From Polytrichum commune (lineage: Eukaryota; Streptophyta; Polytrichopsida; Polytrichales; Polytrichaceae), in contig OX485809.1 of NCBI GenBank assembly GCA_950295325.1, forward strand, positions 29,774,144-29,838,143: a stretch of DNA of 64,000 nt, in the 5' to 3' direction. Position 1 is the stretch's first letter. Every line of letters begins with the position of its first letter. Positions 3,193-41,557 of this stretch are shown in pieces. The position numbers were made by a program, and so were the translations under genes. The notes under the pieces are model-generated. The model did not search any database and was not told the origin of the DNA. It saw only the letters and a program-made list of their open reading frames with translations.

Positions 3193-5077
3193 CCTGGTAT
3201 CCCCTCTTCCTCTTCACCTCACACCACATCTCCATTTGACCTTCGCCGATCCACTGCACAGCTACTACTCCTCATCATCATCATCCCTACCAGGCCCATT
3301 TCCTATCGCCAATTCACCTCCCAAACCATGCGAACTTAACTTTCTGTCCGATCGCCCCAATCCAAGCGGGGCCTTGCACTCTGAAGGATCTCGTGGAAGA
3401 TTGAGCTACGCTTGCACAATCCAAGCAAGCAACGATTGAAGCGGCAATAACAAAAACCCTAACCCCGCTGTGGAGCCACTGTTGGCAAGGAATAATAAGT
3501 TAAAGAGATGCTTCACACCTATGGGTAAGTCCTAATTGTGATTGCTAAACTTACCAATCCTAATGGTAAATTAACCCAATTTTAAGCTAACCTATATGTC
3601 ATTTCATTCACACCTATACATAGGAAAATTTACCACAAACGTCACATATATAGAGTGGGTTACTACTCTTGTTCACACATGACCAACATTAAACTCACTT
3701 TGCTTGCCACGTGTCATGTTGATCACAATAGTTCACTGTCATTGTCTTTACCTTACCACTTTTCTTAGGATGTGAAATACACATTTAATAGCAAATGATT
3801 ATCAAATCCAAATCGTGCATGTCGTCATTTTTCTCATCATTTCTGGAGTTGATATGAATATTCTATTCATTGTCAAAGTGAGGATTTTATGAGTTATTGA
3901 ATGGTCATACAAGTCCCCCAATTATGTTGACTATTACATTTAAAATGGTTAACAACTTTTGAGTACATAGTCCAATCTTTTTTCAACGCACCATTTTTTG
4001 TTGCCCTTTCTTAAATTGTATCCAACCATATACCACTCAAATATATGTGTTTGTTCATGGTCAACCACCAAATTAAGCACATATAATTTAGTGTTGGATC
4101 CATGAACCTCATGCAAATCAACAAGAGGGAATCCGAGATAAGCAAGTGTTAATTGATCACTGTAACACCCGCTTCTCGTAGGTTGCGCAATCAATGTGAG
4201 ATGGTTGTCAAAATGCCAAATCATGTCCATAGCCATCTGTTTCATAATATTCTAAGCTCGTATGCATGTCTTATGCATTGTCAAGAACGAAGATTCTCGG
4301 TGTGGTTAATGGTCATTTCGGTCCTTCCCCACTCATGCTAATTATCAAGCCTTCAATAATTACCATATTTAGAGAAGCGTATACGTGATTACGTTTCATT
4401 TCCTATCTACCACTTCAAGACTTTGAAGCTCGTATTTTTCTACATACACATGCTACTGAAACACTTCTCTCCCTATCAGCCTCATGCTGCAAGAACACTT
4501 TAAAAAAAAGTTAACCTCAATATATGTTACAGGTGTCTTCATTAGTTATTGTTTTATTAATCTCATCGTTTCATAAAGTTGTAACGTGGCAACCATCGCA
4601 AAACAACAAAATCCTCACCTGACCAGAACATTGCCAGTCCCATCAGGGTATGAACATACCAACAGCCATGTAGGTTCCACAACAGGGTATGAACTAAAAC
4701 AGAAACCGGGTATTGTTTACCCTATCCCGGTGTGTTTAAATGGACTTTATCCGGGTATGAAACTGGCAACAAGACCGTGTATTCTTAGGCCTCATCCGGA
4801 TATATGGACCTGTGTATTTGCATGCCTCATTATTCAAATTGGAGGGTTCAACAAAAATTGCGAAAACTGGATTCTTGCATCAAAGGATTTCTTGCTCATC
4901 TCTTCGGTAGCTCGAGCTTCCGCACCGCAACCGAGTTCACTCGTCGCGCAGTTCTTCACCGTGGGTTAAGTTAGCTAACATAGAGCTTGCCTTAGTCATC
5001 CAAATCTTCCCTTTAATGTAACTTCGCAACCGATTTTCTTCGTAAGGTATCCGAGAGAGACATCGTTTGGTAATACG
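3067..5077. other. Intergenic spacer with decayed dispersed repeats
   Basis: Two degenerate copies of one dispersed repeat lie at about 3835-3975 and 4225-4350. They share the theme CATTGTCAA(A)G..GA.GATT..ATGGTCAT..GTCC, and a third copy lies at 41955-42110. About 3960-4060 also resembles part of the repeat at 31400-31480. From 4,640 to 4,800 a GGGTATGAA motif recurs three times. Nothing here looks like a gene except the probable promoter and leader of the PPR gene just before 5,078. Confidence 0.45.
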
Positions 5078-7464
5078 ATGCAAGCAGTTTCGCTCTGCGC
5101 GGCCGGGAATGTTGCACATTTTAAACAGAGTGCGGGGAGGGAAATTGTCGATGGAAACAGCGCACAATTGAAGTTCACGGCGAAAGAATGGGAGAAAATG
5201 AGGCTGCGGTGGTGCGGAGGAATCCGTAATGGAAAATGGCGGGGATGCTGTAGCGCTGTGTATGGATATGTGGAGTTTAGGGCTTGTAGGGTTAGCGACG
5301 GAGATGGTAGACGGAGGAGTGTGATTACGAACGCAAGCTTAGGCAATAGCGAGAGATCTACAAGAGAGCCACGTTTGAAAGGCAATTTGTCACGAAGGGC
5401 GATGCACGCGGTGAAATTTCTGCTTGGATGTAAGGAGAAAGAGCAAGGGAGAGATGTTATTGAGGCGGCATTGCGGCGTTGGGTGGTGAGCATGAGCCCC
5501 AAGCGAAAGGATTGGCTTGAAGTGTTGAAGCAATTCGAGAATGCGCCCGACCGGTCGCTTTATTTCATAGTGAGAGATTCTTTCCTTTTGCTTACGGTGA
5601 TCTTGACATAAAGAAAGGTACCTTGGGGGTTTATGGCAGGTTCAGGGTTTAGTGTTTAGGATTATTCCATTCTAATTTCTCGCATACTCGGTAAGAAGAC
5701 AAAATTTGTCCATTTATGAGAAGAATTGTCAGGGATGAGATTTTTCAGGAAGCGGTCACATGTGTTGGTCACGTGGCTTCGCTGGATTCTCAACCTACAG
5801 AGCCTTCTGAACTGTCTTACTAAGCTGAAGTATTCAAGCAATTCGAGAATGTGGCCGACCTGTCGTTTCATTTCATAGTTAGAGATTCTTTCCTTTTACT
5901 CGTGATTTTGACAGAAAGAAATGTACTTGGGGTTTGCAAAGGGTTTAGTGTTTATGCTTTTTACTACTTTAATTTCTCTCCTACTCGGTGAGAAGACAGA
6001 TTTCTCCGTTTATGAGAAGAATCATCTGGGATAAGATGCTTTAGAAAGCGGTCACATGTGTTGGTCGTGGACCTCGCCGTATCCTCAACCTAGAGAGCCT
6101 TCTCAATTGTCTCACTAAGAAGGTGTTGAAGCAACTGGAGAATGCGGCCGACCGTTCGTTTTATTTCATAGTGAGATCATTTTCTTTTGCTCACGGTGAT
6201 TTTGAGAGAAATTAATGTAATTGAGGTTTGCGTAGGGTTTAGTGTTTAGGTCTATTCCATTCTAATTTCTCTCATACTCGGTGAGAAGACGAGATTTCTC
6301 TGTTTACACCAAGAGGCCTTCTGAGTCTTCTGATTTCTCTGTTTACACTTGTTGGTCATGGACCTTATTGGATTCTTAACCTTAGAGGCCTTCTGAGTCG
6401 TCTCACTAAGCTGAACCTTGCAGATTGCCGAGTGGGGACTTCAAGAGAGCTGGTTTGAAGCCGGCATTCGGGACTACACCAAATTGATAGATAGGTATGG
6501 TAAAGAGGGCTATGTTGAGAAAGCTGAAAGCACATTCCACCTTATGGAGCAGTGTGGAATATGCGCGGATTTGGCGACACACACCGTAATGATAGGAGTT
6601 TATGGTCGGGCTAACATGCTGGAGAGGGCTAGGGAAGTGTTGCGAGAGACCTCGCTTGCAGGTTTTGCATTAGATGCAACTGCCTACAAGGCCATGATTG
6701 TTGCATACGGTTGTGCAGGGTTGCCTGTGGAGGCTGAGACTGTGCTAAACGAGATGGAGTCAGCTGGGGTGACAGGTGCAGCTGACACTTATCTTGCCCT
6801 TATGACTGCTTACGGAAGGTTAGGACAAGCCACCGAAGCACAGAGGATCTTCGATCGGATGCATTGGAATGGCTTTCGCGGAGATTTGAAAGCATTTACA
6901 TCTCTTATGGAAGCCTACACCCATGCCAATGACTTCGAGAACGCCATTGTCATTTTCAGGAGCCTCAGAGCTGCAGGATTGAAACCGGACGACAGAGCAT
7001 TGTCACGTGTTGTCAGCATATATGGCAAGGCAAACCTGCTCGACAAGGCTGTGGAGGTTGTTGCAGATTTAGAGGATGCTGGATTAAAGCTTGGTCCACT
7101 TACTTTGACAGCTCTCGTCAGGTGGTTTGCTAAATTTGGACTCGTCGAAGAAGCAAATCAGGTGATTGAGAAGATGAGAGTTCTGCGGATGCCTGTGAGT
7201 TCGAAAACGTATGCAAATATGTATGCTGCATATGCATCAGCAAGGCAACTCGAAGAGGCTGACAGGGTTTGGGACTTGATGGTAGCAAATGGGATGAAAC
7301 TCTATGAGGATGAGTCGAGTGCTATTGTTGAAGCTCTTATGGCTGCACAGTTTTATGAAAAGGCACAAACGGTATGTATGGAGTTGGAAACACAAGGTTG
7401 GGCCCCTTCTGTGGAGTTGAAGTCTGCCCTTGCTCAACACTTGCAACTTGCAGTTGGTAGCTGA
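5078..7464 (+). CDS. P-class pentatricopeptide repeat (PPR) protein, two exons
   Basis: Predicted exons are 5078-5569 and 6424-7464, joined in phase 0 (donor ATA/GTGAGA, acceptor TTGCAG/ATT), giving about 510 residues. Exon 2 encodes nine consecutive 35-residue PPR motifs with the helix pattern xxYxxLIxxYGxxGxxxxAxxxxxxMxxxG. There is no E, DYW or SMR tail, so it is P-class. The N-terminal 100 residues are basic and Ser/Arg-rich and start MQAVSLCAAG, which would fit an organelle transit peptide. PPR proteins bind single-stranded RNA, mostly in plastids or mitochondria, for stabilisation, splicing or translation. Read in the usual numbering (residues 5 and 35), the repeats give TD, TD, KA, LD, TD, SG, TS, AY, SS; TD normally prefers G. 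The exact target is unknown. The intron contains two duplicate copies of the exon 1 end. The start is the first ATG of the open frame. The family call is firm; the exon junction is inferred from the sequence. Confidence 0.85.
5519..6415 (+). repeat. Three tandem ~300-bp units spanning exon 1 end and PPR intron
   Basis: Units begin at about 5519, 5827 and 6120 with GAAGTGTTGAAGCAA or close variants. Each carries the last ~50 bp of exon 1, the donor (ATAGTGAGAG, ATAGTTAGAG, ATAGTGAGAT), a conserved GGGTTTAGTGTTTAGG stretch, and an end resembling CTTCTGA..TGTCTCACTAAG. Copy 1 is the coding one; copies 2 and 3 lie inside the intron. All three retain a GT donor at the same point. The third unit has a further small internal duplication around 6300-6350. 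Sequence directly before exon 2 is the end of unit 3. Confidence 0.85.
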
Positions 7465-12468: not shown

Positions 12469-12508
12469 ATAGAGAATCTGCTTGGGAATTGCGGTTTGCT
12501 TATTAGCG

Positions 12509-14826
12509 ATGGCGGGGCCTCCGCAAGACGGCAACAAATTGGATCGGAGAGTAGATGGAAACCTCCTGGCAGCTCGAGCGTTCGCAAAGGCAGGTGTGGA
12601 GCAGATGTTCGGAGTGGTAGGGATTCCGGTGACCTCGTTCGCAACGTCATGTGTGCGGGAAGGTGTTAGGTTTATCGCCTTTCACAACGAGCAATCAGCC
12701 GGTTATGCAGCCGGTGCAGCGGGTTACTTGACAGGGAAACCTGGCGTCTTGTTGACTGTCTCCGGGCCGGGATGCGTGCACGGCCTGGCGGGGCTGAGCA
12801 ATGCATTTATCAACACATGGCCGTTCATTTTAGTTTCCGGCTCAAGTGTTCAGGCCGACATCGGCAAAGGAGATTTCCAGGAGCTGGATCAAGTGGAGAT
12901 CGTGAAACCGTTTGCGAAGTATGCTGGTAAGGCACACAACATTGCGGAGATTCCAGGAGTGGTTGCACAGGCGGTCGCCGCGGCAGTGAGCGGCAGGCCA
13001 GGTGGCACCTATGTGGACTTGCCTTCGGATGTGCTACATGAGGAGGTTAGCGAGGAGGAAGCTGCGAGATTGCTTGATGGATTGAAACCTTATGTGCCAG
13101 CATGGCAACGGGAGGGGTTGACTAAAGAATTAGGGGCAGGGGATAAGGAGATTCACGAGGCTGCTTCTTTGTTGCGGAATGCAAAGAATCCGTTGATTGT
13201 GTTTGGGAAAGGTGCAGCTTACGCGCATGCTGAAGGTAGTTTGAAGAAATTGGTGGAATCGACAGGCATTCCGTTTTTAGCCACGCCCATGGGGAAGGGT
13301 TTACTACCGGACGCTCATCCTTTGTCAGCTGCAGCTGCCCGATCTTTAGCATTAGGCGAAACTGATGTTGCTCTGATTGTTGGAGCAAGATTGAACTGGT
13401 TGCTTCACTTCGGTGAGCCTCCTCGGTGGTCCAAGGATGTCAAATTTATATTGGTGGATGTGTCACATGAGGAAGTGGAGTTTCGGAAACCTGCTCTTGG
13501 GTTGATTGGTGATGCGGATGTGGTTATTAAGCAATTGAATAAGGAGATCAAGGATGAACCATTCTGCTTGGGGGAGAAGCATCCATGGGTGCAGAAAATT
13601 AAGGCCAAGGTACAAGCAAATGTGCAGAAGATGGCAGGATCATTGAACAAGGATGTAGTGCCTTTCAACTTCTTGACACCGATGCGTATCATCCGAGATG
13701 CCATTCTTGCGGAGGGTTCTCCAGCTCCAATCCTGGTTTCTGAAGGTGCAAATACTATGGACGTAGGGAGGTCAGTGTTGGAGCAAACGGAGCCACGAAC
13801 CAGATTAGATGCTGGGACTTGGGGAACCATGGGGGTTGGGTTGGGGTACGCCATTGCTGCTGCTGTGGTGTGTCCTGAAAAACTTGTTGTAGCTGTTGAA
13901 GGTGACTCTGGCTTTGGCTTTAGTGGCCTTGAAGTTGAGGTATGAGATTCAGCTTAGCACTCTTTGAATACGTGGTTGTCTGTGGCAGGATCCTGGTCTA
14001 CCTCTCCATAATGACACAAAAAACTTCAGATCTACTCATGCAAGAGATTTCAGTATATATCCAGCTGATGCATAGCTACATCTTGGAAAGAGTTGCAATT
14101 TAATGATACCTGTTTGTTTTAATGAGGCACTGTGAGGGAAACAGTCAGTCTACCATCAGACTATGTGTCTGGATGACCACTAAGTCCAATGAACTTAGCA
14201 CTTCTTTGAATTTGTGAGTGTCTGTCGTAGAGTCCTGGTCTATCTCTGCATGATGACACAAAAAACCTGAGAGCTACTTGTGCAAGAAATTCAGTATAGA
14301 TCCAGATGATGCATAGCTACACCTTAGTGACACTTGTTTGTTTTAATTAGGCACTATGAGGAGAACAGTCAGTCTACCATTGAACTATATGTTTGGATGA
14401 CCACGAGGTTTTGCAAGTAATATGGTTTTTAGACATGTTTCTTGAATGCAGCAATGTCAACTGATCAAATGTCCATCTTGGCCTTACTCTGGTGAGTGGA
14501 TTTGTTTGCAGACTTTAGTCCGGTACAAGCTACCAGTAGTTGTGATCATTTTCAACAATGGCGGTGTCTATGGTGGCGATCGTCGACCTCCTGAAGATTT
14601 AGTAGGCCCGCACAAAGATGATCCTGCCCCAACATCTTTTGTCCCAGGTGCTCGTTACGACTTGGTCATGGAAGCTTTTGGTGGGAAAGGGTACCTAGTG
14701 GAAAACCCTGAGGAGCTCAAGGCTGCCTTGAAGGAATCATTTGCTGCCAGGAAACCTGCAGTAATCAATGTGACAATTGACCCATATGCTGGTTCTGAAA
14801 GTGGTCGCATGGGTCACAGAAATTAA
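12509..14826 (+). CDS. HACL: 2-hydroxyacyl-CoA lyase / oxalyl-CoA decarboxylase (ThDP enzyme)
   Basis: Exons 12509-13939 and 14512-14826 join in phase 0 (GAG/GTATGA, TTGCAG/ACT) to give about 581 residues, a normal length for the family. Thiamine diphosphate enzymes of this type cleave 2-hydroxyacyl-CoAs to formyl-CoA plus an aldehyde, or decarboxylate oxalyl-CoA; the plant member is tied to oxalate breakdown. Visible hallmarks are the activating glutamate in FHNEQSAGYAA (Glu61), the VSGPGCVHGLAG stretch, GRPGG.YVDLPSDV, the central FGKGAAYAHAE region, and the cofactor/Mg motif GDS (465-467) to NN (492-493), which spans the intron. It ends SGRMGHRN with no canonical SKL-type peroxisome signal. 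I chose the ATG at 12509 (MAGPPQ) because the frame upstream of it lacks an ATG. The intron holds a tandem duplication. The identity is strong; the exact substrate is not shown by sequence. Confidence 0.95.
13951..14403 (+). repeat. Tandem duplication inside the lyase intron (2 x ~230 bp)
   Basis: Unit 1 begins near 13951 (GCTTAGCACTCTTTGAAT) and unit 2 near 14191 (AACTTAGCACTTCTTTGAAT). Both then carry CCTGGTCTA, ATGACACAAAAAA, GATGCATAGCTACA, TTGTTTTAAT and CAGTCAGTCTACCAT in order, ending TGGATGACCAC. Divergence is clear but modest. Together they make up most of the 572-bp intron. Confidence 0.85.
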
Positions 14827-31510: not shown

Positions 31511-31630
31511 ACGTCCACATACCTTAGTATGGTAACTTCGCCAAATTCATATTTGTAGACCAAATGGATTTGCATAGAAGGTGGAAGTTCATCTTCCCAA
31601 GTTCATTGTCGTCCATTTAAAAAGCAATGT

Positions 31631-31873
31631 CCAGCGGTCGCCTGCTTTACCTTCCGTGTACGCATGCCTTCGCCATTGTCCCGCGTGTCCCATCATAATT
31701 CCGAAGTTTTATCCAGCGGTCGCCCAACGCAGACACTGCTGCACTTCCCTCGCTAAGTTCAGAAAGTATCCAGCGGTCGCTGTGATTATCCCCAATATAA
31801 TACCAATAACGTACATCCGACTGCGCTAAATTGAGCGGTTGTCCAGCGGTCGCTTGCTGTACCTTCCGTGTAA
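31631..31873 (+). promoter_or_regulatory. Four CCAGCGGTCGC motifs upstream of the E1 gene
   Basis: CCAGCGGTCGC occurs at 31631, 31713, 31770 and 31843, i.e. 82, 57 and 73 bp apart, all in the same orientation. The first and last are followed by TACCTTCCGTGTA, so ~30 bp was duplicated. The motif is GC-rich in an AT-rich setting and lies 1.1-1.3 kb before the E1 start codon, near the likely transcription start. Whether it binds a factor is unknown. Confidence 0.5.
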
Positions 31874-32160: not shown

Positions 32161-32830
32161 GAGGATTAGCCCTAATTTCAAGTTCTGCACAGCTGCAGAT
32201 TTGGTTTGGTTTGGTCTGGTTTGAAGTTGTGTGTGTGGTTATTTGTGGCTGGGGGCGATTTGAAATGACGGGAATTGTGTTCTGAGGAATTTTGCCCTAG
32301 TTTTTGGTATTGCAGAGCTGCGGGAACTCACTCGGGTTTGAGTTGATTCGAAGCGCTTTTAAGTGTTGTGTGGTATTTTGGTCTCCGAAAAAGTGGTGGG
32401 TGAATGAATTGACGAGAATTCTTTTTTGGATTTTGCGTGAGGAATTTTTCCCTAGTTTATGGTGTTGCAGAGCTGCGGAAAACCGCTCGGGTTTGGTTTC
32501 ATTTGATTGATACGGTTTGGTTTTGATTTGGAGTGTGGGCTGGTTGTTTGGAATCCGAGGAAGTGACGGGAATTTTGTTTAGGGTGTTTGTGGGAGGAAT
32601 TTTGCCCTAGTTTGTGTTGCTGCAGAGCTGCGGGAAATCGCTCGGGTTTGATTTGGTTTGGTTTGGATTTATTTGAAGTGTCGGGTGGTTGTTTGGACTC
32701 CGAAGAAGTGGCGGGTGAATGAAATGACGGGAATTGCATTCTGGTTTTGTGTGAGGAATTTTCCCTAGTTTTTGGTGTTGCAGAGCTCGGGTTTGATTTG
32801 GTTAGAATTTGAAGTGCTGGGTGGTTCTTT
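32161..32830 (+). repeat. Five ~155-bp tandem units in the E1 leader
   Basis: Units start at about 32161, 32284, 32439, 32594 and 32753 with GAGGAATTTTGCCCTAG or a variant, followed by TGTTGCAGAGCTGCGG and CTCGGGTTTG, and later GTGACGGGAATT or similar. Each therefore repeats acceptor-like (CCCTAG, TTGCAG/AG) and, in some copies, donor-like (GTGAGG) sites. The array ends about 100 bp before the E1 start codon, so it probably lies in the 5' untranslated region or a leader intron. Confidence 0.85.
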
Positions 32831-32934
32831 GGACTGCCAGGGGGACTGGGGCAGGAAAGGAACGGAACGGAAAAGATTGTTGATTAGGCATTCGAAGGCG
32901 GATGTGAAGAATCATTAGCCCTACGGATTCGAGA

Positions 32935-35900
32935 ATGGTAACCATGGACGTGGACAATGCGCCAGCGGACGGAGGAGGCATAATCAACGTGGCGACAGTG
33001 TCAGCTCCGTCCATGAAGGAGACGAACGAGCTGCGGTACTCGCGGCTAATCCACACATTAGGCAGGGAGGCAGTTAGCTCGCTGCAGCACAGCCGAGTGC
33101 TGATTGTAGGTTGCAAGGGGGTGGGAGCTGAGGTGGCGAAGAATCTGGTGATGTCAGGTGTGCAAGGGTTAGGGTTGGTGGATGATGAACCAGTTGCCAT
33201 AGCCGATCTCGGGGCACAGTTTCTCCTCAGTGGTGCTGACGTGGGACGAAACCGGGCAGTTGCCACAGCACACAAATTGAAGGAGAGCATCAGCCCATCC
33301 ATTGAGATTGTGACCTTGACATCCGGCCATGCGTTGGAGAGTGCAGTGGGGAGCTATGGTGCTATGGTGGCCACTGTGGGCACATTACCAGAGTTAATCA
33401 GATGGAACTCCATATGTCGCTCCTTGGGTGTTCCGTTTGTGGCAGCCATTTGTCGTGGTGTGTTTTCATCTGTGTTTGTGGATTTTGGAGATGATTTCTC
33501 CATTCTGGATGAAACAGGGGAGCCTCCGGGGGTGATTCTGGTGGAGGGCATTACACAGGACTTTCCTGCCACGGTGACAGTTGTCGAGGAGCAGAGGCAT
33601 GGCCTTGAGGATGGAGACGAGGTGGTGTTTAATGGGATTAAGGGAATGGAGGACTTGAATCGGTCGACACCGTATGCAATTACAGTGGCAGGAGTGAATT
33701 CTTTCACCATACAGGAGGACACACGATCTTATGGCCGGTATTTGTCAGGTGGGTATTTCAGTAAGGTGAAGACATCCAAGAGAGTGGAATTTATGTCTCT
33801 GGAAAGGGCGCTGGTGGCTCCAAAGTTCTGTGTTAGTGACCCTGTGAAAGAATCCCGAGCATTACACCTGCATGTTGCCTTTCAAGCTGTGGATGAGTTT
33901 GAGAGACGACGACGACATCATCATCATAATGGGGAGAATAATCCATCACCATCATCATCATCCTCAAGTGCTGCTGCTATTAGCTCTGACCAATTGCACG
34001 AGGTTGTAGCATTGGCTCGCGAAATTTGGACAAACTTAGATGTTGTGGGTGTTGGGAAGGGGAATGCTAGCAATGGTAGCTTCTCAATGGAAGAGTCAGC
34101 TGAAGCGGCGGAGGAAGAGGAGCCGGCTGAGGTTGTTTTGAAAACTCTTGGGGAAAGAGAACAGGGCCTGAATGAAGAGAGAGGAGCTGGATGTAGCGGT
34201 GTAAACAGTAGCATAGATGGCATGGCGGCAGCAGCAGCCGCCGCTACGGGGGTGATTTTGGGCAATTCACAGGCTGGACCATCATCATTTCGGAAGAAGA
34301 TTGACATAGACGAGGAGTTTGTACGACTTCTTGCACAAGGTGCACATGTTGAACTGTGTCCTGTAGCTGCTGTAACTGGCGGCATTGCTGCCCAGGAGGC
34401 CATGAAGGTACCTTTTAAATTTTCCTATGTGCAACCTAGGGGAGCAGCCATCCATCTGTCGATCTCTGATGATGAAAGTTTGTTCTGGCCGACTGCTGGT
34501 GTGTCCAACATGTTCGTAGCAGTGATGATGGTTCTCACCAGCAATCAATCCTCCACTTCCATGGGCTTTTAAAATCTCTCAAGGGGAGTTGGATAGAACA
34601 TCAATTATTGCACAGCAGACAAAACTTGATCACTATGGTTGGTTGGGTTTTAAACACTTCTCTACGGAGCCTTCTCCCCTGTCACGTCATGCATAGGCAA
34701 GTCAGAAGGAGTTTCCACAACTCTCTTGCAATCTCTTTACATATTGAGGGCCACAATCCATAAATTCAGGATTTTTGTTATGCCCCACTTCTCATTGTGT
34801 TTGATTTGGCATTGACAGGGACTGTCAAGGGTTTTCACCCCACTACAACAGTGGCTATACTTTGATGCTGTGGAGTGCCTTCCGGCTGCACCACTTCCTT
34901 CAGAGGACACCGCCCCTTGTGGGTCTCGTTATGATGACCAGATATCCTTGCTAGGCCGAGCATTTCAGGAGAAGCTTGGGTCCCTTCAGGTGTGTGTGTC
35001 TTTGAAGAAGATGTCTCTTTGTTACAATAACAGTTTCCATTATGACAATTGCAGTCTATATCTGAATACCTACTCTGACGGTCATTAGGCAACCTTCTCT
35101 GTGATGGAACATGGAGACTCAGACTTCAGATTTGTAGGAAGTTTTAGCATTCAAATGATTGTGGTGGCCATTCATAGGGTTGGTTGCTGATTTAGTTTGA
35201 GTGTGTGCAGTGGCTTGTCGTGGGGGCAGGTGGACTTGGTTGTGAAGCGTTGAAGAACTTGGTAATGATGGGTGTGGGCTGTAGCTCAAATGGCAGCATC
35301 ACAATCACAGACATGGATGTAGTTTCCAAGCCCAACCTGGTTGATCAACTCCTTTATCAGCTTGAGGATGTCGATCGTGCAAAGGCGCCGGCAGCTGCAA
35401 GAGCTTTGCGAACAATCAATCCTTCTGCTCAGATTCATGCACTGCAGGTAGTCTGTTCTTCCTCCCCATCACATCCCTTTTAAAGATTTCTCAGCTGTCT
35501 TCCAAGGTCTGGTTCTATTGGGTGGGAGACCATAATGTCCAACACTAGTGCAGGTTCCATCTAGTGTGATGTATTGTAGGTGTGAACACAGGCACATGCA
35601 CTGTTAGGTGAGTCTACAGGCACTGATATTCTCATCAGAGGTTTTTTATCCGTGAGTGAACCTGCAAATGTGCAGGAAAGGTTTGACCCAGAGACGGAGA
35701 CTATTTTTGACTCTTCATTCTTCAACTCAATAGCAGGTATATTAAGCACAGAAAGTCTGGTTAGCACATAAAGCTTGATGATGAATATCACTGAAAAGTC
35801 ATTTAATGTCTGAGGCCACAGTTGCAATGTCTTGGGGATGATGGATATTTGGGTTGGAGTTGCAGGTGTGTTTTCAGCTGTAGATTCTTCATCATCAAGG

Positions 35901-38900
35901 CTTTATCTCGACACTCGATGTGTTTCCAATAGGAGGCCAATGATTGATGGTGGCAAGCATGGAACCAAAGGCAGTGTTCAGGTTGAGCTTTTAACCTAAT
36001 CACGTGATAACATAATACTTGCAGTTTGCCATATATTCATGGTTTTACTGGCCAAGTTATGCCAAGTTCTCACAAGAGGTGGGCTAATAGAGAAGGAGAA
36101 TCAGCTCATCATATGAAGAATCTGAATTCTTGTTTGTGGTAACCTCTTGATGATGCTACCTCCAAGCATTGTATGTTTTCATCCAGGTGTTGAAGCATTC
36201 TTCTCCCAGTTTGCCAAATGTTGGAGATTTGTATTTCCTTCTAGACCATGTAATCCTAAAGTTTGAATGCCTCACCAGTTTTAGCTTCTACTACTGATTG
36301 CAGGGTCTTCATTGTAATGGCAGGTGTTTGTACCATTTTGTACTGAGATGTATGCATCTACTCGGGACCCTCCAGAGCACAAGGAAATACCTATATGTAC
36401 ATTGAAAAATTTCCCTTATGCAACAGAGCATACTCTTAGGTGGGCTGTGGAGACCTTTGATGCTCTCTTCAAGAGTCGACCTGTTGATGTGAACGCCTAT
36501 TTGTCTAGCCGTGACTTCCAGGACAGTATACGTAAATCACCAGCTTCATCACGGCTTCCCATCTTGGAAACTCTTCATGATGCACTTTTGCGACATCGGC
36601 CCTTGAGGTTGGTCTGTCAACCTAGAGCTAAGTCTAGTCAATACCTGCATAAGGTTTTCCCATGCAAGATGCATACTATTAAAATGAAATTATCTCCTCG
36701 TGAAGTTTCTTGAGGTTTTGCTTCATTATATTTTATTGGTGTTATAACTATCTAGCAAACTCTTTTAGGGCTTAATTAAAAAAAATTGGGGACTGCTAAC
36801 TCATAATATTACTCAGAACTTAGTGCTCGTTCAGTGGGCCCTTGGATTATAACAGTCAGATGCTCAGAAAGCTTTGCAGGGAGACTCAGATTTTAACTGA
36901 GCTCCCAGCATCTGACTGCTGTATTCCGAGGGCCCACATCGCTGAGTAATGTTATGCTGCATCAGAGCGTTGATCTATTTATTTCTTTATTGATTTCACC
37001 TGAAAATGCATTTCATTTTAACCGAGAGAAATGCCACTTCCATATTCTGGATTTCTGACAACATCTTCTGTTGCTCAACAAGTACTTGCCAACACTTGTA
37101 AGTTCGGGTAAGAACACTTGCAACTGCAGATAGTTGCAAAAGTGGAGTGTTTATGCTAGTGTGCCTTCTTGAATCAATATCTCTGCTATTATAAAAAGGC
37201 AGATAATGGAAGGTTCTTTGTTCTCTATGGAGGGCTTGGATGCTGATTGAAAGGTCAAGCCTTTCATGAGCATTTACAGATCTCAACATGAGGTTGTGCA
37301 ATTTTGGTACTGTCTAGTTCTTGGGGTAGTATTATCCAGAGGTGGCAAATGGGCTGATGAGAACTCAATTTGTGGTCCAGTTTGGACGCGTGTGTGCAAT
37401 GGGCTCGTTTGCAATTTGAAGACTTATTTTCCAATAGCATCAAGCAGGTATGGTTCTGCTATGTGTGAAGACTACAATTAGGAGAATATCTCGCCCTCTG
37501 ACAAGACATTGTGTCATTATGAGAATGGACGCTTATTTTACAATCACCCCCTATGATGAGTTTATGAATGCCTTAGTTTGTTTGGCTAATCTGTTTTGTG
37601 CACAAGACTGTGAGCTTTATATTGAAGTGCAACATTCTGTAATCTGTACAGTGAGGTATCAGCTGTTGAAAAGAGAAGTAAATATTAGAAGAGAAGAGTT
37701 TTTTTGTATACAAAATTCAAGTTGATTCTTAGAGACTGTCTTATTTTCTGCCCTATTCTATGCATAGCTGTATGATTTATCTTTTATGTTATTATTCACA
37801 TTGGGATCTTAATCTTGGAGGTGGCCAATCTGATTCCACCTAGTAGACTACTATCTTATTTAATATTTCCATCATGATAAATGATGGGCATTGTTTTGCT
37901 TATGTCTACATTGGCAGCTCTGTTTCAATTTTCCTGCTGGTATGACCACAACTGCGGGTGCCCCTTTCTGGAGTGGAACAAAAAGAACTCCAACACCGCT
38001 TGTCTTTGATACTTCTGATCCTCTCCACCTTGACTTCATAATGGCTGCTGCCAACCTTCAAGCCACTGTCTATGGTCTCAAAGGATGCCAGGACCGGGCT
38101 CTTTTTGTAGATCTTCTTCAGCGTGTTGTTGTTCCTCCATTTGAACCCAAAGTAAGTGTTTTTCTGACCTCTCTTTTCAAGGTGTATTACTTTCATGGTT
38201 ATGCATCAAGGTGTTGAATGAAACTTGTGTACAAGTACGACAAGCACAAGTAGCATACTTTGTTCATTGCCAGTAGATGCTTGTCTGCCAGAGAGGTGTG
38301 GTCTATTCCTAAAGGGCTCACCCTCAACATTTGGTCAAAGAAGGCCATCAAATGCAATCACTGCTTTCCTGGTTTCATGTTTTATTTCAATGTTGTTCTT
38401 CAGTACTGCACTTTTCTAGATGATTGTTTTTAAACCTATATCTGAAATTTACACGAAAAATTAATATCCATACATGAGATTTTTTAGTGATTATTCCTAA
38501 ATCCTCCTGAAGAGCTCGAGTTTCTCCAATAAAATGTGGATGTTGACATGAAAGAAAGGGGAGAATGGAGAATGGCATGGGCTATTGCTATTGGTGATGA
38601 GTTGTACTAAAGTGCATGAACACTGTTGTCTTATTGAGATTGAAACCAATAATTTGTTACCGATGGTCTTTTAAATACAATTCTGTTGCATTAACATTTT
38701 ATATGGAGACAATGAGAAATACAAGGAGATACTAGATGTCTCATACTGGTGATGAAGGAAAGGCTTAACAACCATTTAGCCTTTAGGGGTTAGTATCTTG
38801 GTTTCAAGGGATGGAATTTGCAGACTTTGCTACACTGAATATCGCCATTATTGTGAGTTGATAATTAGTCTTACTATCTCGCATTGGCTGCTAATTCCTG

Positions 38901-41557
38901 AACTTATTGAGAATTAACGTCTCTTTTCAAATAATAAACAGGATGTTACATAAAATGAAATATTTGTCAAGTGTGTTATTATATCAACCTAATCTTATTA
39001 AATTACACACCAATTTTTATTTCACAAATAGCATGGACCACAATACCTGGTACATTCATAGCTGGTGTAGTTATTTGTAATCAGCGCTATGTGAATTATT
39101 CATGAACTATTTGAGGTATTATGATATCGCACTGAATGTGGGCCACACTAATGGCTATATCCAGTGTAGTGAATAGAAATATTTCAGTTCATTTTATGTA
39201 TGGAGTTCCACTCAGACCTCTATATCTACAGTGCTCCAATATTTTAAACCATCTTCAAACCTCCTCTCTAATTTTGAGATTGTTTAGCCTCTTTTTAATT
39301 GACCACCAAAGCTTTGGTATAGGAAGGGGTGAAGATTGCAGTAACAGATAATGAGTTGCGAAATCAACCTAGTCAACAACGAAGGGGTCGACATGCAGAG
39401 GACACTGAGGCTGCTGAGTCATGTGAAAGAATTTTACGCGAGCTCCCCACCCCAGCTACTCTTGCGGTTAGTACAGACCTACCATTTTTGAAGCATGGTT
39501 TCCTGTTGATTCAGCTACACTGATATGTGCAATTAGTTTGCCCCATATCAATATATCAACATTCCACACTATTTTTATACGTAACTACCACAGTAACAAT
39601 ATATGGTGATTATTACTATACTGTGGTTGCTGTACGAATGGATTAACAAAGTTGTAAGTTTTTGTTTTCTGATTTTGACCCAAGGTAATATGCATGTGTA
39701 AAGAGACAGCCTATTTGTGAAGGCAGCCTAATTGCACATATTGGCATACTTTGTTATACTTGGAATCGTCATTCACGAGTGTTGTATTTGATGTATGCGC
39801 AGCTAAATTGAAGTACGTTTGTAATTATTGTATACTTATAGAAACTTGGGATTCTAATAGAGCTGTTCTATCATGGAGTTGATCTAATTTGCGTGGTGAA
39901 AGTCACCAGTTCAAGTTACTCAACCTGTGATTTTGGTTATGGTCACTTATTAACATCTTATGATTACAGGGATACAGATTGGTGCCCATTGAGTTTCAGA
40001 AGGACGATGAGCACAGTTTTCATGCCGAGTTTGTGGCTGCAGCTGCCAGTTTGAGGGCACAGAATTATGGCATTCCCAGTACAGATAAATTACAGGTGTG
40101 TGTTGGCCGGGTACTACAATAGAGGGCACTCTATTTCCATGTTTACTAGTGCCAGAATGTAGTTTCCATGTGCGATTTAGAGAGGGGCTCAGCCAATGTA
40201 GGATTGACACATGGAAAATATCAGGGATTTTTAAATTAAAAAAGTCCGTTTGAAATAGAGAGTGGTATAGTCCATTTTGCACCTGTAGGGTAACACTGTT
40301 AAGTGGGTTGCAGGCAAGGCTTGTTGGTGGAAGAGTTATTCCCGCTATCGTGACAACCACAGCGGTGGTGGGAGGTCTGATGTGTTTGGAGTTGTACAAG
40401 CTAATTCAGGGAAAGCCGCGATTCGATTATAAACATGCATACTTCAACTTGGCTGTACCTCTCTTTGCTTTTGCACAACCTATTCAAGCTTTGGAGCACA
40501 CGGTAATTTGCTACCCTTTTCAAACATATTAAATCAGAACCATTTGATTCAACTCTTGTCCAGATATATTTTGACTGGTACAGATAGGTCCTTGTTGTGT
40601 GCAAGTCCTTTGGTTTTTACTGACGAACATTATTTCTGTTGGTTCAGGTGGCAAGGAAGCATGGAACACCGTTAGTGTGGACATTGTGGGACAGGTTTGA
40701 GATGGACTGTCAGAACATGAACTTGGAAACATTTTTAGCTGAATTCCAGCGCCAACAGGGTCTTGAGGTATTTATCTCGTGTACAAGATTTCTCTTGAAT
40801 ATTAGAGTTATCCTCTAACTCAACATAACTTTTTGTCGGGAGTTCGTTGTTTTGCATACAACACCTTCCATGTTTGGTAATTTTATGTCTGCTTGGAGGT
40901 AGTGTAGAGGTTTGAGCGTAGAACATTCTATAGCGGTTCATTGAGGATCAGACTCATTTTTTGCATGCCAATAAGTGCTAAAAGAAGTTTGGCCCTCAAA
41001 TGAACCACCAAAATAGGTTGCTCTTCAATCCAATTCAAACACTACCTCTAAGCATGCACCACAAGTGGAAAGGAATTACTTACTTTGCATGCAAAACTAC
41101 CAAATGGAAAATCAGAGGGGACCAACTCCCAGCAAAAAGTCCCATCGAGGTAAAGGATTACTCTATTGTGACTTGTGACAATTTCTTTATGCTGTGTCTT
41201 TTACTATTGGGATTCCAGAGTATCTCTTGTCAAGAAAAAGGTTTCACTTGCTGTTGTCCAACCTGAAATTTCATTATTTCCAACAAGACAAGAAGAAATC
41301 TAACTGAAGATTTTTTTCTGGGTGACATTGTGGTGCAGATTACTATGCTTTCATTTGGGAAGAGCTTGCTGTATGCCGAGTTTCTTCCTCGAAAAAAGCT
41401 TCAAGACAGGATGCCATTAAGTCTGATCGACCTTGTCACTACAGTGGGCAAGGTGACACTGCCACCCACAGAGAGCAATATCACTTTCTCCATTTCATGC
41501 ACAGATGCAAATGATGAGGATGTTGAGGTTCCGGATGTTGTGGCCAAAGTGCGATAG
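32935..41557 (+). CDS. UBA1: Ubiquitin-activating enzyme E1, divergent, 13 exons
   Basis: Inferred exons: 32935-34407, 34819-34989, 35211-35447, 35676-35736, 35866-35981, 36324-36607, 37381-37447, 37918-38151, 39323-39466, 39970-40095, 40314-40502, 40648-40767, 41339-41557; about 1,146 residues, all GT-AG. E1 adenylates ubiquitin with ATP, then holds it as a thioester. Order seen: inactive adenylation half (RYSR..TLGREA at 34-46, GCKGVG at 59-64), FCCH region, active adenylation half ([10 protein letters not shown] at ~551-560), catalytic-cysteine domain with PICTLKNFP (Cys711), SGAPFWSG-like [14 protein letters not shown], and C-terminal ubiquitin-fold domain (WTLWDRF ... [12 protein letters not shown]). 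Oddities: a His/Ser/Ala/Glu-rich insertion at ~325-450; NLVDQLLY (590-597) replaces the usual [16 protein letters not shown] replaces [17 protein letters not shown] replaces ESGTLGTKG. The frame is intact throughout, so it looks expressed. The exon 9 start could also be 39326. Confidence 0.92.
36812..36946. mobile_element. TA-flanked MITE inside E1 intron 6
   Basis: A 135-bp foldback: ends CTCAG...; arms share GTGGGCCCT.GGA and CAGTCAGATGCT with their complements; flanked by TA (36810-36811, 36947-36948). Stowaway-like by target site, but without the CTCCCTCC tip. It sits in the middle of the 773-bp intron. Confidence 0.65.

What the first reader, a model, noticed from the sequence alone, without database searches (positions are those of the whole stretch)
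35211..36607. E1 enzyme with altered ATP-site residues but intact catalytic cysteine
Seen: in the active adenylation half the usual NLNRQFLF reads NLVDQLLY, so the arginine becomes aspartate; ALDNVDAR reads [17 protein letters not shown] reads DGGKHGTKG. The thioester cysteine in PICTLKNFP (Cys711), the GxGxxG loop, the TDMD aspartates and a lysine in the RAKA position are kept. Known: the arginine and asparagine help bind ATP and the adenylate in E1s. Inference: either a specialised E1 with a changed adenylation mechanism or partner, or a pseudo-activating enzyme that still carries thioester. The frame is intact over 13 exons, so the gene is not simply decayed.
Basis: partly seen in the sequence, partly recalled or inferred. 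Interest (0 to 1): 0.7.

Follow-up and report, generated by a model that had tools for sequence, protein, structure and literature searches.

The report
Plant ubiquitin E1 with altered ATP-site
A plant gene encodes a complete, intact relative of the enzyme that starts ubiquitin tagging, but an arginine that grips ATP in every relative examined has become an aspartate while the ubiquitin-carrying cysteine is kept, so it may be an E1 whose first step is crippled or changed.

Summary
Exons 3-6 of a 13-exon, 1146-residue UBA1-type E1 (32935-41557 +) read [16 protein letters not shown] and DGGKHGTKG; Cys711 is kept. The arginine facing ATP's gamma-phosphate (UBA1 R515, MoeB R73) is Asp593; it is Arg in 18 of 18 active-type adenylation domains examined. 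Other named ATP contacts (Arg37, Asp582, Asp584, Asn590, Gln594, Lys606, Arg629, Asp654) are kept. Changes concentrate in the phosphate-binding g6 element, residues 587-598: 7 of 11 family-invariant residues lost, 28 of 108 elsewhere (stretch chosen after the fact). An earlier claim of mine, that the adenylation half is relaxed and the thioester half conserved, rested on a wrong domain border and is withdrawn. The open frame and conservative substitutions argue against decay. Best reading: a UBA1 paralogue with weakened or altered adenylation. Untested: a canonical E1 in the same genome (genome search did not complete), plant orthologues, dN/dS, expression, activity.

The parts
32935..34407 (+). 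exon 1: start, inactive adenylation domain (IAD), FCCH, partial four-helix bundle with a low-complexity insert (about residues 325-450)
   Evidence: splicing; Pfam FCCH 211-279, 4HB 281-326
33043..33045 (+). codon of Arg37, equivalent of gamma-phosphate contact UBA1 R57 / UBA6 R46, kept
   Evidence: alignment; role from PMC12355090 passages and PMC9391358 section 8
34819..34989 (+). exon 2: end of IAD and start of active adenylation domain (AAD)
35211..35447 (+). exon 3: AAD nucleotide-binding core with [25 protein letters not shown]
   Evidence: tblastn
35325..35345 (+). codons 587-593 (S K P N L V D), part of the g6 (g1/g2) element that reads E-K-S-N-L-N-R in UBA1; Asp593 replaces R515
35382..35384 (+). 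codon of Lys606, equivalent of UBA1 K528, kept
35676..35736 (+). exon 4 of AAD
35866..35981 (+). exon 5 of [11 protein letters not shown] and DGGKHGTKG
35883..35885 (+). codon of Asp654, equivalent of Mg-binding UBA1 D576, kept
35955..35957 (+). codon of Lys678, where UBA1 has Thr600 and UBA7 Thr564 (whose backbone contacts the Ubl di-glycine)
36324..36607 (+). exon 6: crossover loop, catalytic cysteine, first part of SCCH
   Evidence: Pfam SCCH 717-972
36396..36398 (+). codon of catalytic Cys711 (UBA1 C632, UBA6 C625), kept
37381..37447 (+). exon 7 (SCCH)
37918..38151 (+). exon 8 (SCCH)
39323..39466 (+). exon 9 (SCCH)
39970..40095 (+). exon 10 (SCCH, last part; second cluster of changed but mostly similar invariant residues, 939-979, begins here)
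40314..40502 (+). exon 11 (reentry loop and AAD C-terminal part with the equivalent of the ubiquitin Ile44-patch surface)
40648..40767 (+). exon 12 (start of UFD)
41339..41557 (+). exon 13: UFD and stop codon, with the acidic DEDVEVP stretch

Best explanation
The gene encodes a full-length, divergent UBA1-type E1, probably of a plant, in which the part of the ATP site that holds the beta and gamma phosphates has been changed. It most likely still folds as an E1 and still uses Cys711, but adenylates ubiquitin poorly or by an altered route, so that it works as a low-activity or regulatory (pseudo-)E1, loaded slowly by itself or by back-transfer from E2~ubiquitin. Shown: the intact gene, the residue changes, the kept residues, their concentration around the g6 element. 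Inferred: weak adenylation, ubiquitin and E2 binding, the loading route, a regulatory role, and that a canonical E1 exists elsewhere in the genome.
For: UBA1 architecture (Pfam; NCBIfam TIGR01408 975.5 bits against a cut-off of 750.05; best PDB match UBA1, 857.7 bits). Asp593 sits where R515/R508 contacts phosphates (PMC12355090 passages; PMC9391358 section 8); Arg in 18 of 18 domains examined. PMC10409785 section 8 says that mutation of the equivalent arginines significantly decreases E1 activity; a table passage of PMC10169658 lists reduced activity for E. coli R14/R73 double mutants. Of 119 residues invariant in six canonical E1s, 7 of 11 in 587-598 are changed against 28 of 108 elsewhere (Fisher p 0.015). 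With four UBA1-type references, 585-606 keeps 7 of 17 here and 14 of 17 in L002, although both are equally far from UBA1 in the AAD (46.8% and 47.1% identity). Crossover loop and cysteine: 10 of 10 invariants at 693-716 kept; Thr712 and Lys714 kept. AAD mismatches against UBA1 are conservative (mean BLOSUM62 0.08, null -0.85, z 5.0; thiol part z 3.6).
Against: Arg37, Asp582, Asp584, Asn590, Gln594, Lys606, Arg629 and Asp654 are all kept, more than a dead ATP site would need; Thr626 and Lys628 of UBA6, kept here as Thr712 and Lys714, act around the adenylate in the thiolation state, so adenylate chemistry may go on. No general contrast between adenylation and thioester halves: 40 of 58 and 44 of 61 invariants kept, branch ratio 1.09 against 0.52-1.14, highest in 80 of 200 bootstraps. 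SCCH residues 930-981 lost 12 of 27. No expression, orthologue, structure or assay is at hand.
Confidence: 0.45

Rival explanations
1. A fully active but specialised E1: the site is rebuilt so that another basic residue (for example Lys678 beside the ubiquitin di-glycine) or a shifted metal replaces Arg515, perhaps for another ubiquitin-like protein or E2 set.
For: Eight named nucleotide contacts and both thiolation residues are kept; Lys678 replaces Thr at a position whose UBA7 equivalent contacts the Ubl di-glycine; conservative AAD changes; Ser587 is as in MoeB; no general relaxation of the adenylation half relative to the thioester half.
Against: None of the 18 active-type domains examined lacks the Arg; compensation by Lys678 is untested and no structure was made.
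Confidence: 0.28
2. A gene losing its function: a paralogue under relaxed selection that has not yet broken its frame.
For: Loss of a catalytic residue constant in 18 of 18 domains examined; 35 of 119 residues invariant in six canonical E1s are changed, spread over AAD and SCCH alike, as general relaxation would give; low-complexity expansion in the four-helix-bundle region (Pfam 4HB matched over 2-47 of 70).
Against: 1146 codons open and 12 GT-AG introns despite a terminal branch of about 0.95 substitutions per site; mismatches conservative in both parts, z 5.0 and 3.6, close to S. pombe Uba1 (5.9 and 3.9); 10 of 10 invariants kept at 693-716.
Confidence: 0.22
3. Artefact: wrong splicing, sequencing or assembly error hides canonical residues.
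For: No RNA data were available.
Against: The changed residues lie inside continuous exons; tblastn with UBA1, L001 and L002 at E up to 1 found no second copy of the exon-3 segment in the window apart from cross-matches between the two adenylation domains; the codon is GAT, two base changes from any Arg codon of the CGN type, and several neighbouring codons differ too.
Confidence: 0.03

Closest known systems
UBA1 (ubiquitin E1; PDB 9mc4, 6dc6, 4ii2, 9qgg)
   Same: All domains in the same order, catalytic Cys, crossover loop, Mg aspartate, lysine and arginine finger; 43.8% identity to the 9mc4 UBA1 over aligned columns of the parts used
   Different: R515 to Asp, S511 to Pro, E509 to Ser, N514 to Val, T600 to Lys; insert of low complexity in the four-helix-bundle region
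UBA6 and UBA7
   Same: Same E1 architecture; UBA7 also has Ser after the Mg aspartate
   Different: Lower PDB scores than UBA1 (UBA7 up to 644.1, UBA6 up to 584.5 bits); UBA6 36.1% identity over a 471-residue fragment; both keep the Arg
UBA3 and UBA2 (NEDD8 and SUMO E1 catalytic subunits)
   Same: Share GAGG[IL]G; UBA3 shares Asp-Ser in the Mg motif and DGG
   Different: Separate subunits with another domain make-up; keep the Arg
MoeB / ThiF / Uba4
   Same: Adenylation fold; MoeB has Ser where this protein has Ser587 (by eye)
   Different: No SCCH or UFD (recalled); keep SNLxRQ
Inactive adenylation domains (IAD) of E1s
   Same: UBA1's IAD also lacks the Arg (alignment)
   Different: This is the active domain, which keeps its Mg aspartate, lysine and other contacts; the IAD of this protein shows no NLxRQ

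Membership tests
UBA1-type ubiquitin E1 | IAD, FCCH, 4HB, AAD, SCCH, UFD in one chain | tested here: met
   Pfam (4HB matched over 2-47 of 70 only); TIGR01408 above cut-off
UBA1-type ubiquitin E1 | catalytic cysteine in the PxCTLxxFP helix | tested here: met
   Cys711
UBA1-type ubiquitin E1 | complete ATP site (two phosphate-binding arginines, lysine, Mg aspartate) | tested here: not met
   Arg37, Lys606, Asp654 kept; second arginine is Asp593
UBA1-type ubiquitin E1 | surface for the ubiquitin tail and Ile44 patch | tested here: inconclusive
   crossover loop DPPE kept; hUBA1 F926, F933, S937 are Tyr1014, Leu1021, Ala1025
UBA1-type ubiquitin E1 | ATP-dependent ubiquitin adenylation and thioester | not testable with these tools
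   needs an assay
pseudo-E1 (catalytically dead E1) | loss of catalytic activity with kept fold and frame | tested here: inconclusive
   frame open and substitutions conservative; activity unknown
pseudo-E1 (catalytically dead E1) | a canonical paralogue supplies the cell's E1 activity | not tested
   The genome search did not complete
UBA6 / UBA7 | closest sequence similarity to UBA6 or UBA7 | tested here: not met
   UBA1 scores 857.7 bits, UBA6 up to 584.5, UBA7 up to 644.1

The most novel reading that the evidence does not exclude
A plant lineage keeps under selection an E1 in which the phosphate-binding element of the ATP site has been dismantled or redesigned while the cysteine and crossover loop are kept: an E1 that receives ubiquitin mainly by transthiolation, or that adenylates without the arginine found in every relative examined here.
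Probability: 0.2. Interest if true: 0.75.

Novelty: new variant of a known kind. Interest (0 to 1): 0.45.

Why it matters
E1s are the gate of the ubiquitin system. Pseudo-forms are well known for kinases but, as far as I recall, little described for E1s (my searches, listed none, on capped lists). An E1 under selection without this phosphate-binding arginine would test whether the residue is really needed, and whether an E1 can serve as a ubiquitin-thioester or E2 regulator without activating ubiquitin efficiently itself.

Tried and rejected
Withdrawn: 'adenylation half relaxed, thioester half conserved'. Searches split the protein at residue 930, but SCCH runs to about 981 (Pfam 717-972; UBA6 SCCH 615-892, mapped). 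With wrong borders the contrast looked strong (interaction z -3.8 against L002; highest branch ratio in 88 of 100, and 173 of 200). With right borders it is gone: 40 of 58 against 44 of 61 invariants kept, interaction z -1.8 against L002 (z -3.5 against the recalled, unverified plant E1), branch ratio 1.09 while the 9qgg UBA1 has 1.14, highest in 80 of 200. Odds were lowered for this: best 0.50 to 0.45, novel case 0.25 to 0.20, interest 0.50 to 0.45; decay raised 0.18 to 0.22, active 0.27 to 0.28.

Role swap (the IAD taking over ATP binding): the IAD reads [10 protein letters not shown] and shows no NLxRQ. Alternative exon: none found in the window. Viral contigs: 161 pattern matches, none confirmed. 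Genome contigs: 475 matches, 8 loci, none titled as a plant; two eukaryotic-type E1s lie in records titled as bacterial MAGs and served as canonical controls. Paper searches for plant E1 variants or pseudo-E1s listed no paper that by title or abstract start describes such a gene; searches matched 1,223, 209 and 69 papers and listed 20, 15 and 15. Read beyond listings: passages of PMC12355090, PMC10169658 and PMC5615770, passages and section 8 of PMC9391358 and PMC10409785. The tree does not resolve whether the gene groups with plant or opisthokont UBA1 (support 38, recalled plant sequence included). The labels for 697, 702 and 705's table were misnumbered by me; one search has the right mapping.
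Full report
What is there. The finding's interval is exons 3 to 6 of one gene on the + strand. I spliced 13 exons from 32935 to 41557; all 12 introns are GT-AG, phases fit, and the frame gives 1146 residues and a stop. Pfam finds ThiF, SCCH, UFD, FCCH and part of the four-helix bundle; NCBIfam's Ube1 model is passed with 975.5 bits against a cut-off of 750.05. The best solved relatives are UBA1s (up to 857.7 bits); UBA7 reaches 644.1 and UBA6 584.5. The window also holds a PPR protein frame (6415-7464) and a thiamine-diphosphate enzyme (12473-14826); that the organism is a plant is inferred from these and from gene structure, not shown by a named record.

The changed residues. I mapped residues by alignment with PDB numbering checked. 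In UBA6, R46 and R508 face the gamma-phosphate; A470, R508 and Q509 bond the alpha-phosphate of the adenylate; D569 binds Mg; D499, E502 and N505 a second Mg; K521 helps with pyrophosphate (PMC9391358, section 8). Here R46, R508, Q509, D569, D499, E502, N505 and K521 are Arg37, Asp593, Gln594, Asp654, Asp584, Ser587, Asn590 and Lys606. UBA1 R551 (ATP contact, passage of PMC10169658) is Arg629, and D504 is Asp582. So one of two phosphate arginines is replaced by an acidic residue, one second-Mg ligand is lost, and the other named contacts are kept or, at A470/Gly556, changed to a residue seen in UBA2, UBA3 and MoeB. Asp593 is unmatched in 18 of 18 active-type domains. Pro589 is unmatched too (17 Ser, one Thr in L005). 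Lys678 replaces Thr of the three UBA1s, UBA6, UBA7, UBA2, UBA3, L001 and L002. By contrast Leu557, Ser655, Gln598, the DGG motif and Ser587 each occur in a relative (L002 and UBA3; UBA7 and UBA3; UBA2; UBA3; MoeB).

Where the changes lie. Six canonical E1s (9mc4, 4ii2, 9qgg, L001, L002, UBA6) share 119 invariant residues between 525 and 1035; this protein changed 35 of them. A control: L002 is as far from UBA1 in the AAD as this protein (47.1% and 46.8% identity), yet keeps 14 of 17 UBA1 invariants at 585-606 where this protein keeps 7 of 17. A second cluster, 12 of 27 at 930-981 (p 0.06), lies in the last part of SCCH; its changes are mostly to similar residues, none with BLOSUM62 below 0. 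The crossover loop and cysteine helix (693-716) keep 10 of 10.

A claim withdrawn. I first concluded that the adenylation half is relaxed while the thioester half is conserved. On checking, my border at residue 930 was wrong. With the border at 981 the two parts do not differ: 40 of 58 and 44 of 61 invariants kept, branch ratio 1.09 within the canonical range 0.52-1.14, highest in 80 of 200 bootstraps. The protein is divergent as a whole, with a local focus at the g6 element.

Not simple decay. Differences from UBA1 are conservative: z 5.0 in the AAD and 3.6 in the thioester part, against 5.9 and 3.9 for S. pombe Uba1 and 5.7 and 3.8 for L002. Part of that signal may date from a canonical ancestor. 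With no orthologue, dN/dS could not be measured.

Mechanism. In E1s the g6 (g1/g2) element holds ATP's beta and gamma phosphates and then moves away so that the cysteine can swing in (PMC9391358 section 8; PMC10409785 section 8). This sequence keeps the second act (Cys711, Thr712, Lys714, crossover loop) and alters the first. The simplest reading is an E1 with poor or altered adenylation, still able to carry ubiquitin thioester. UBA1 D576A, which loses a different ATP residue, has essentially no adenylation (PMC5615770 passages); an effect of R515D of that kind is plausible but not measured. A compensated, active E1 is the main rival, because so many nucleotide contacts remain; a gene under relaxed selection comes third.

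Limits. The genome search did not complete, so whether a canonical E1 exists in the same genome is open. The only plant E1 compared rests on recall. Species, expression and activity are unknown.

Noticed in passing
window 32166-32835: The leader just upstream of the E1 start codon holds three to five degenerate direct-repeat copies with spacings mostly near 155 bases (families D1, D2, D5, D6, D9).
   Followed up: partly
window 31628-31872: TCCAGCGGTCGC recurs upstream of the gene, twice within a 33-base copy that is 94% identical (family D8).
   Followed up: no
window 6415-7464: Pentatricopeptide-repeat protein frame (Pfam PPR 1.5e-43), with an upstream open frame at 4979-5611 (no Pfam match) that may be its N-terminal part.
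   Followed up: no
window 12473-14826: Thiamine-diphosphate enzyme in at least two exons (TPP N, M and C domains); by eye like 2-hydroxyacyl-CoA lyase/oxalyl-CoA decarboxylase (recalled, not tested).
   Followed up: no
L002 115-4542: One open frame of 1475 codons, in a rumen record titled Clostridia, reads by eye as a dihydropyrimidinase-like protein continuing without stop into a eukaryotic-type E1: a natural fusion or a misjoined contig.
   Followed up: no
L001 288-3584: Complete intronless eukaryotic-type UBA1 in a record titled Planctomycetota MAG; probably eukaryotic contamination (not tested).
   Followed up: no
window 33907-34284 (residues about 325-450): Low-complexity insert (His, Ser, Glu and Ala runs) within the four-helix-bundle region of the E1.
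   Followed up: no
window 39970-40337 (residues 930-981): The last part of SCCH lost 12 of 27 residues invariant in six canonical E1s, mostly by similar residues; its meaning is open.
   Followed up: partly
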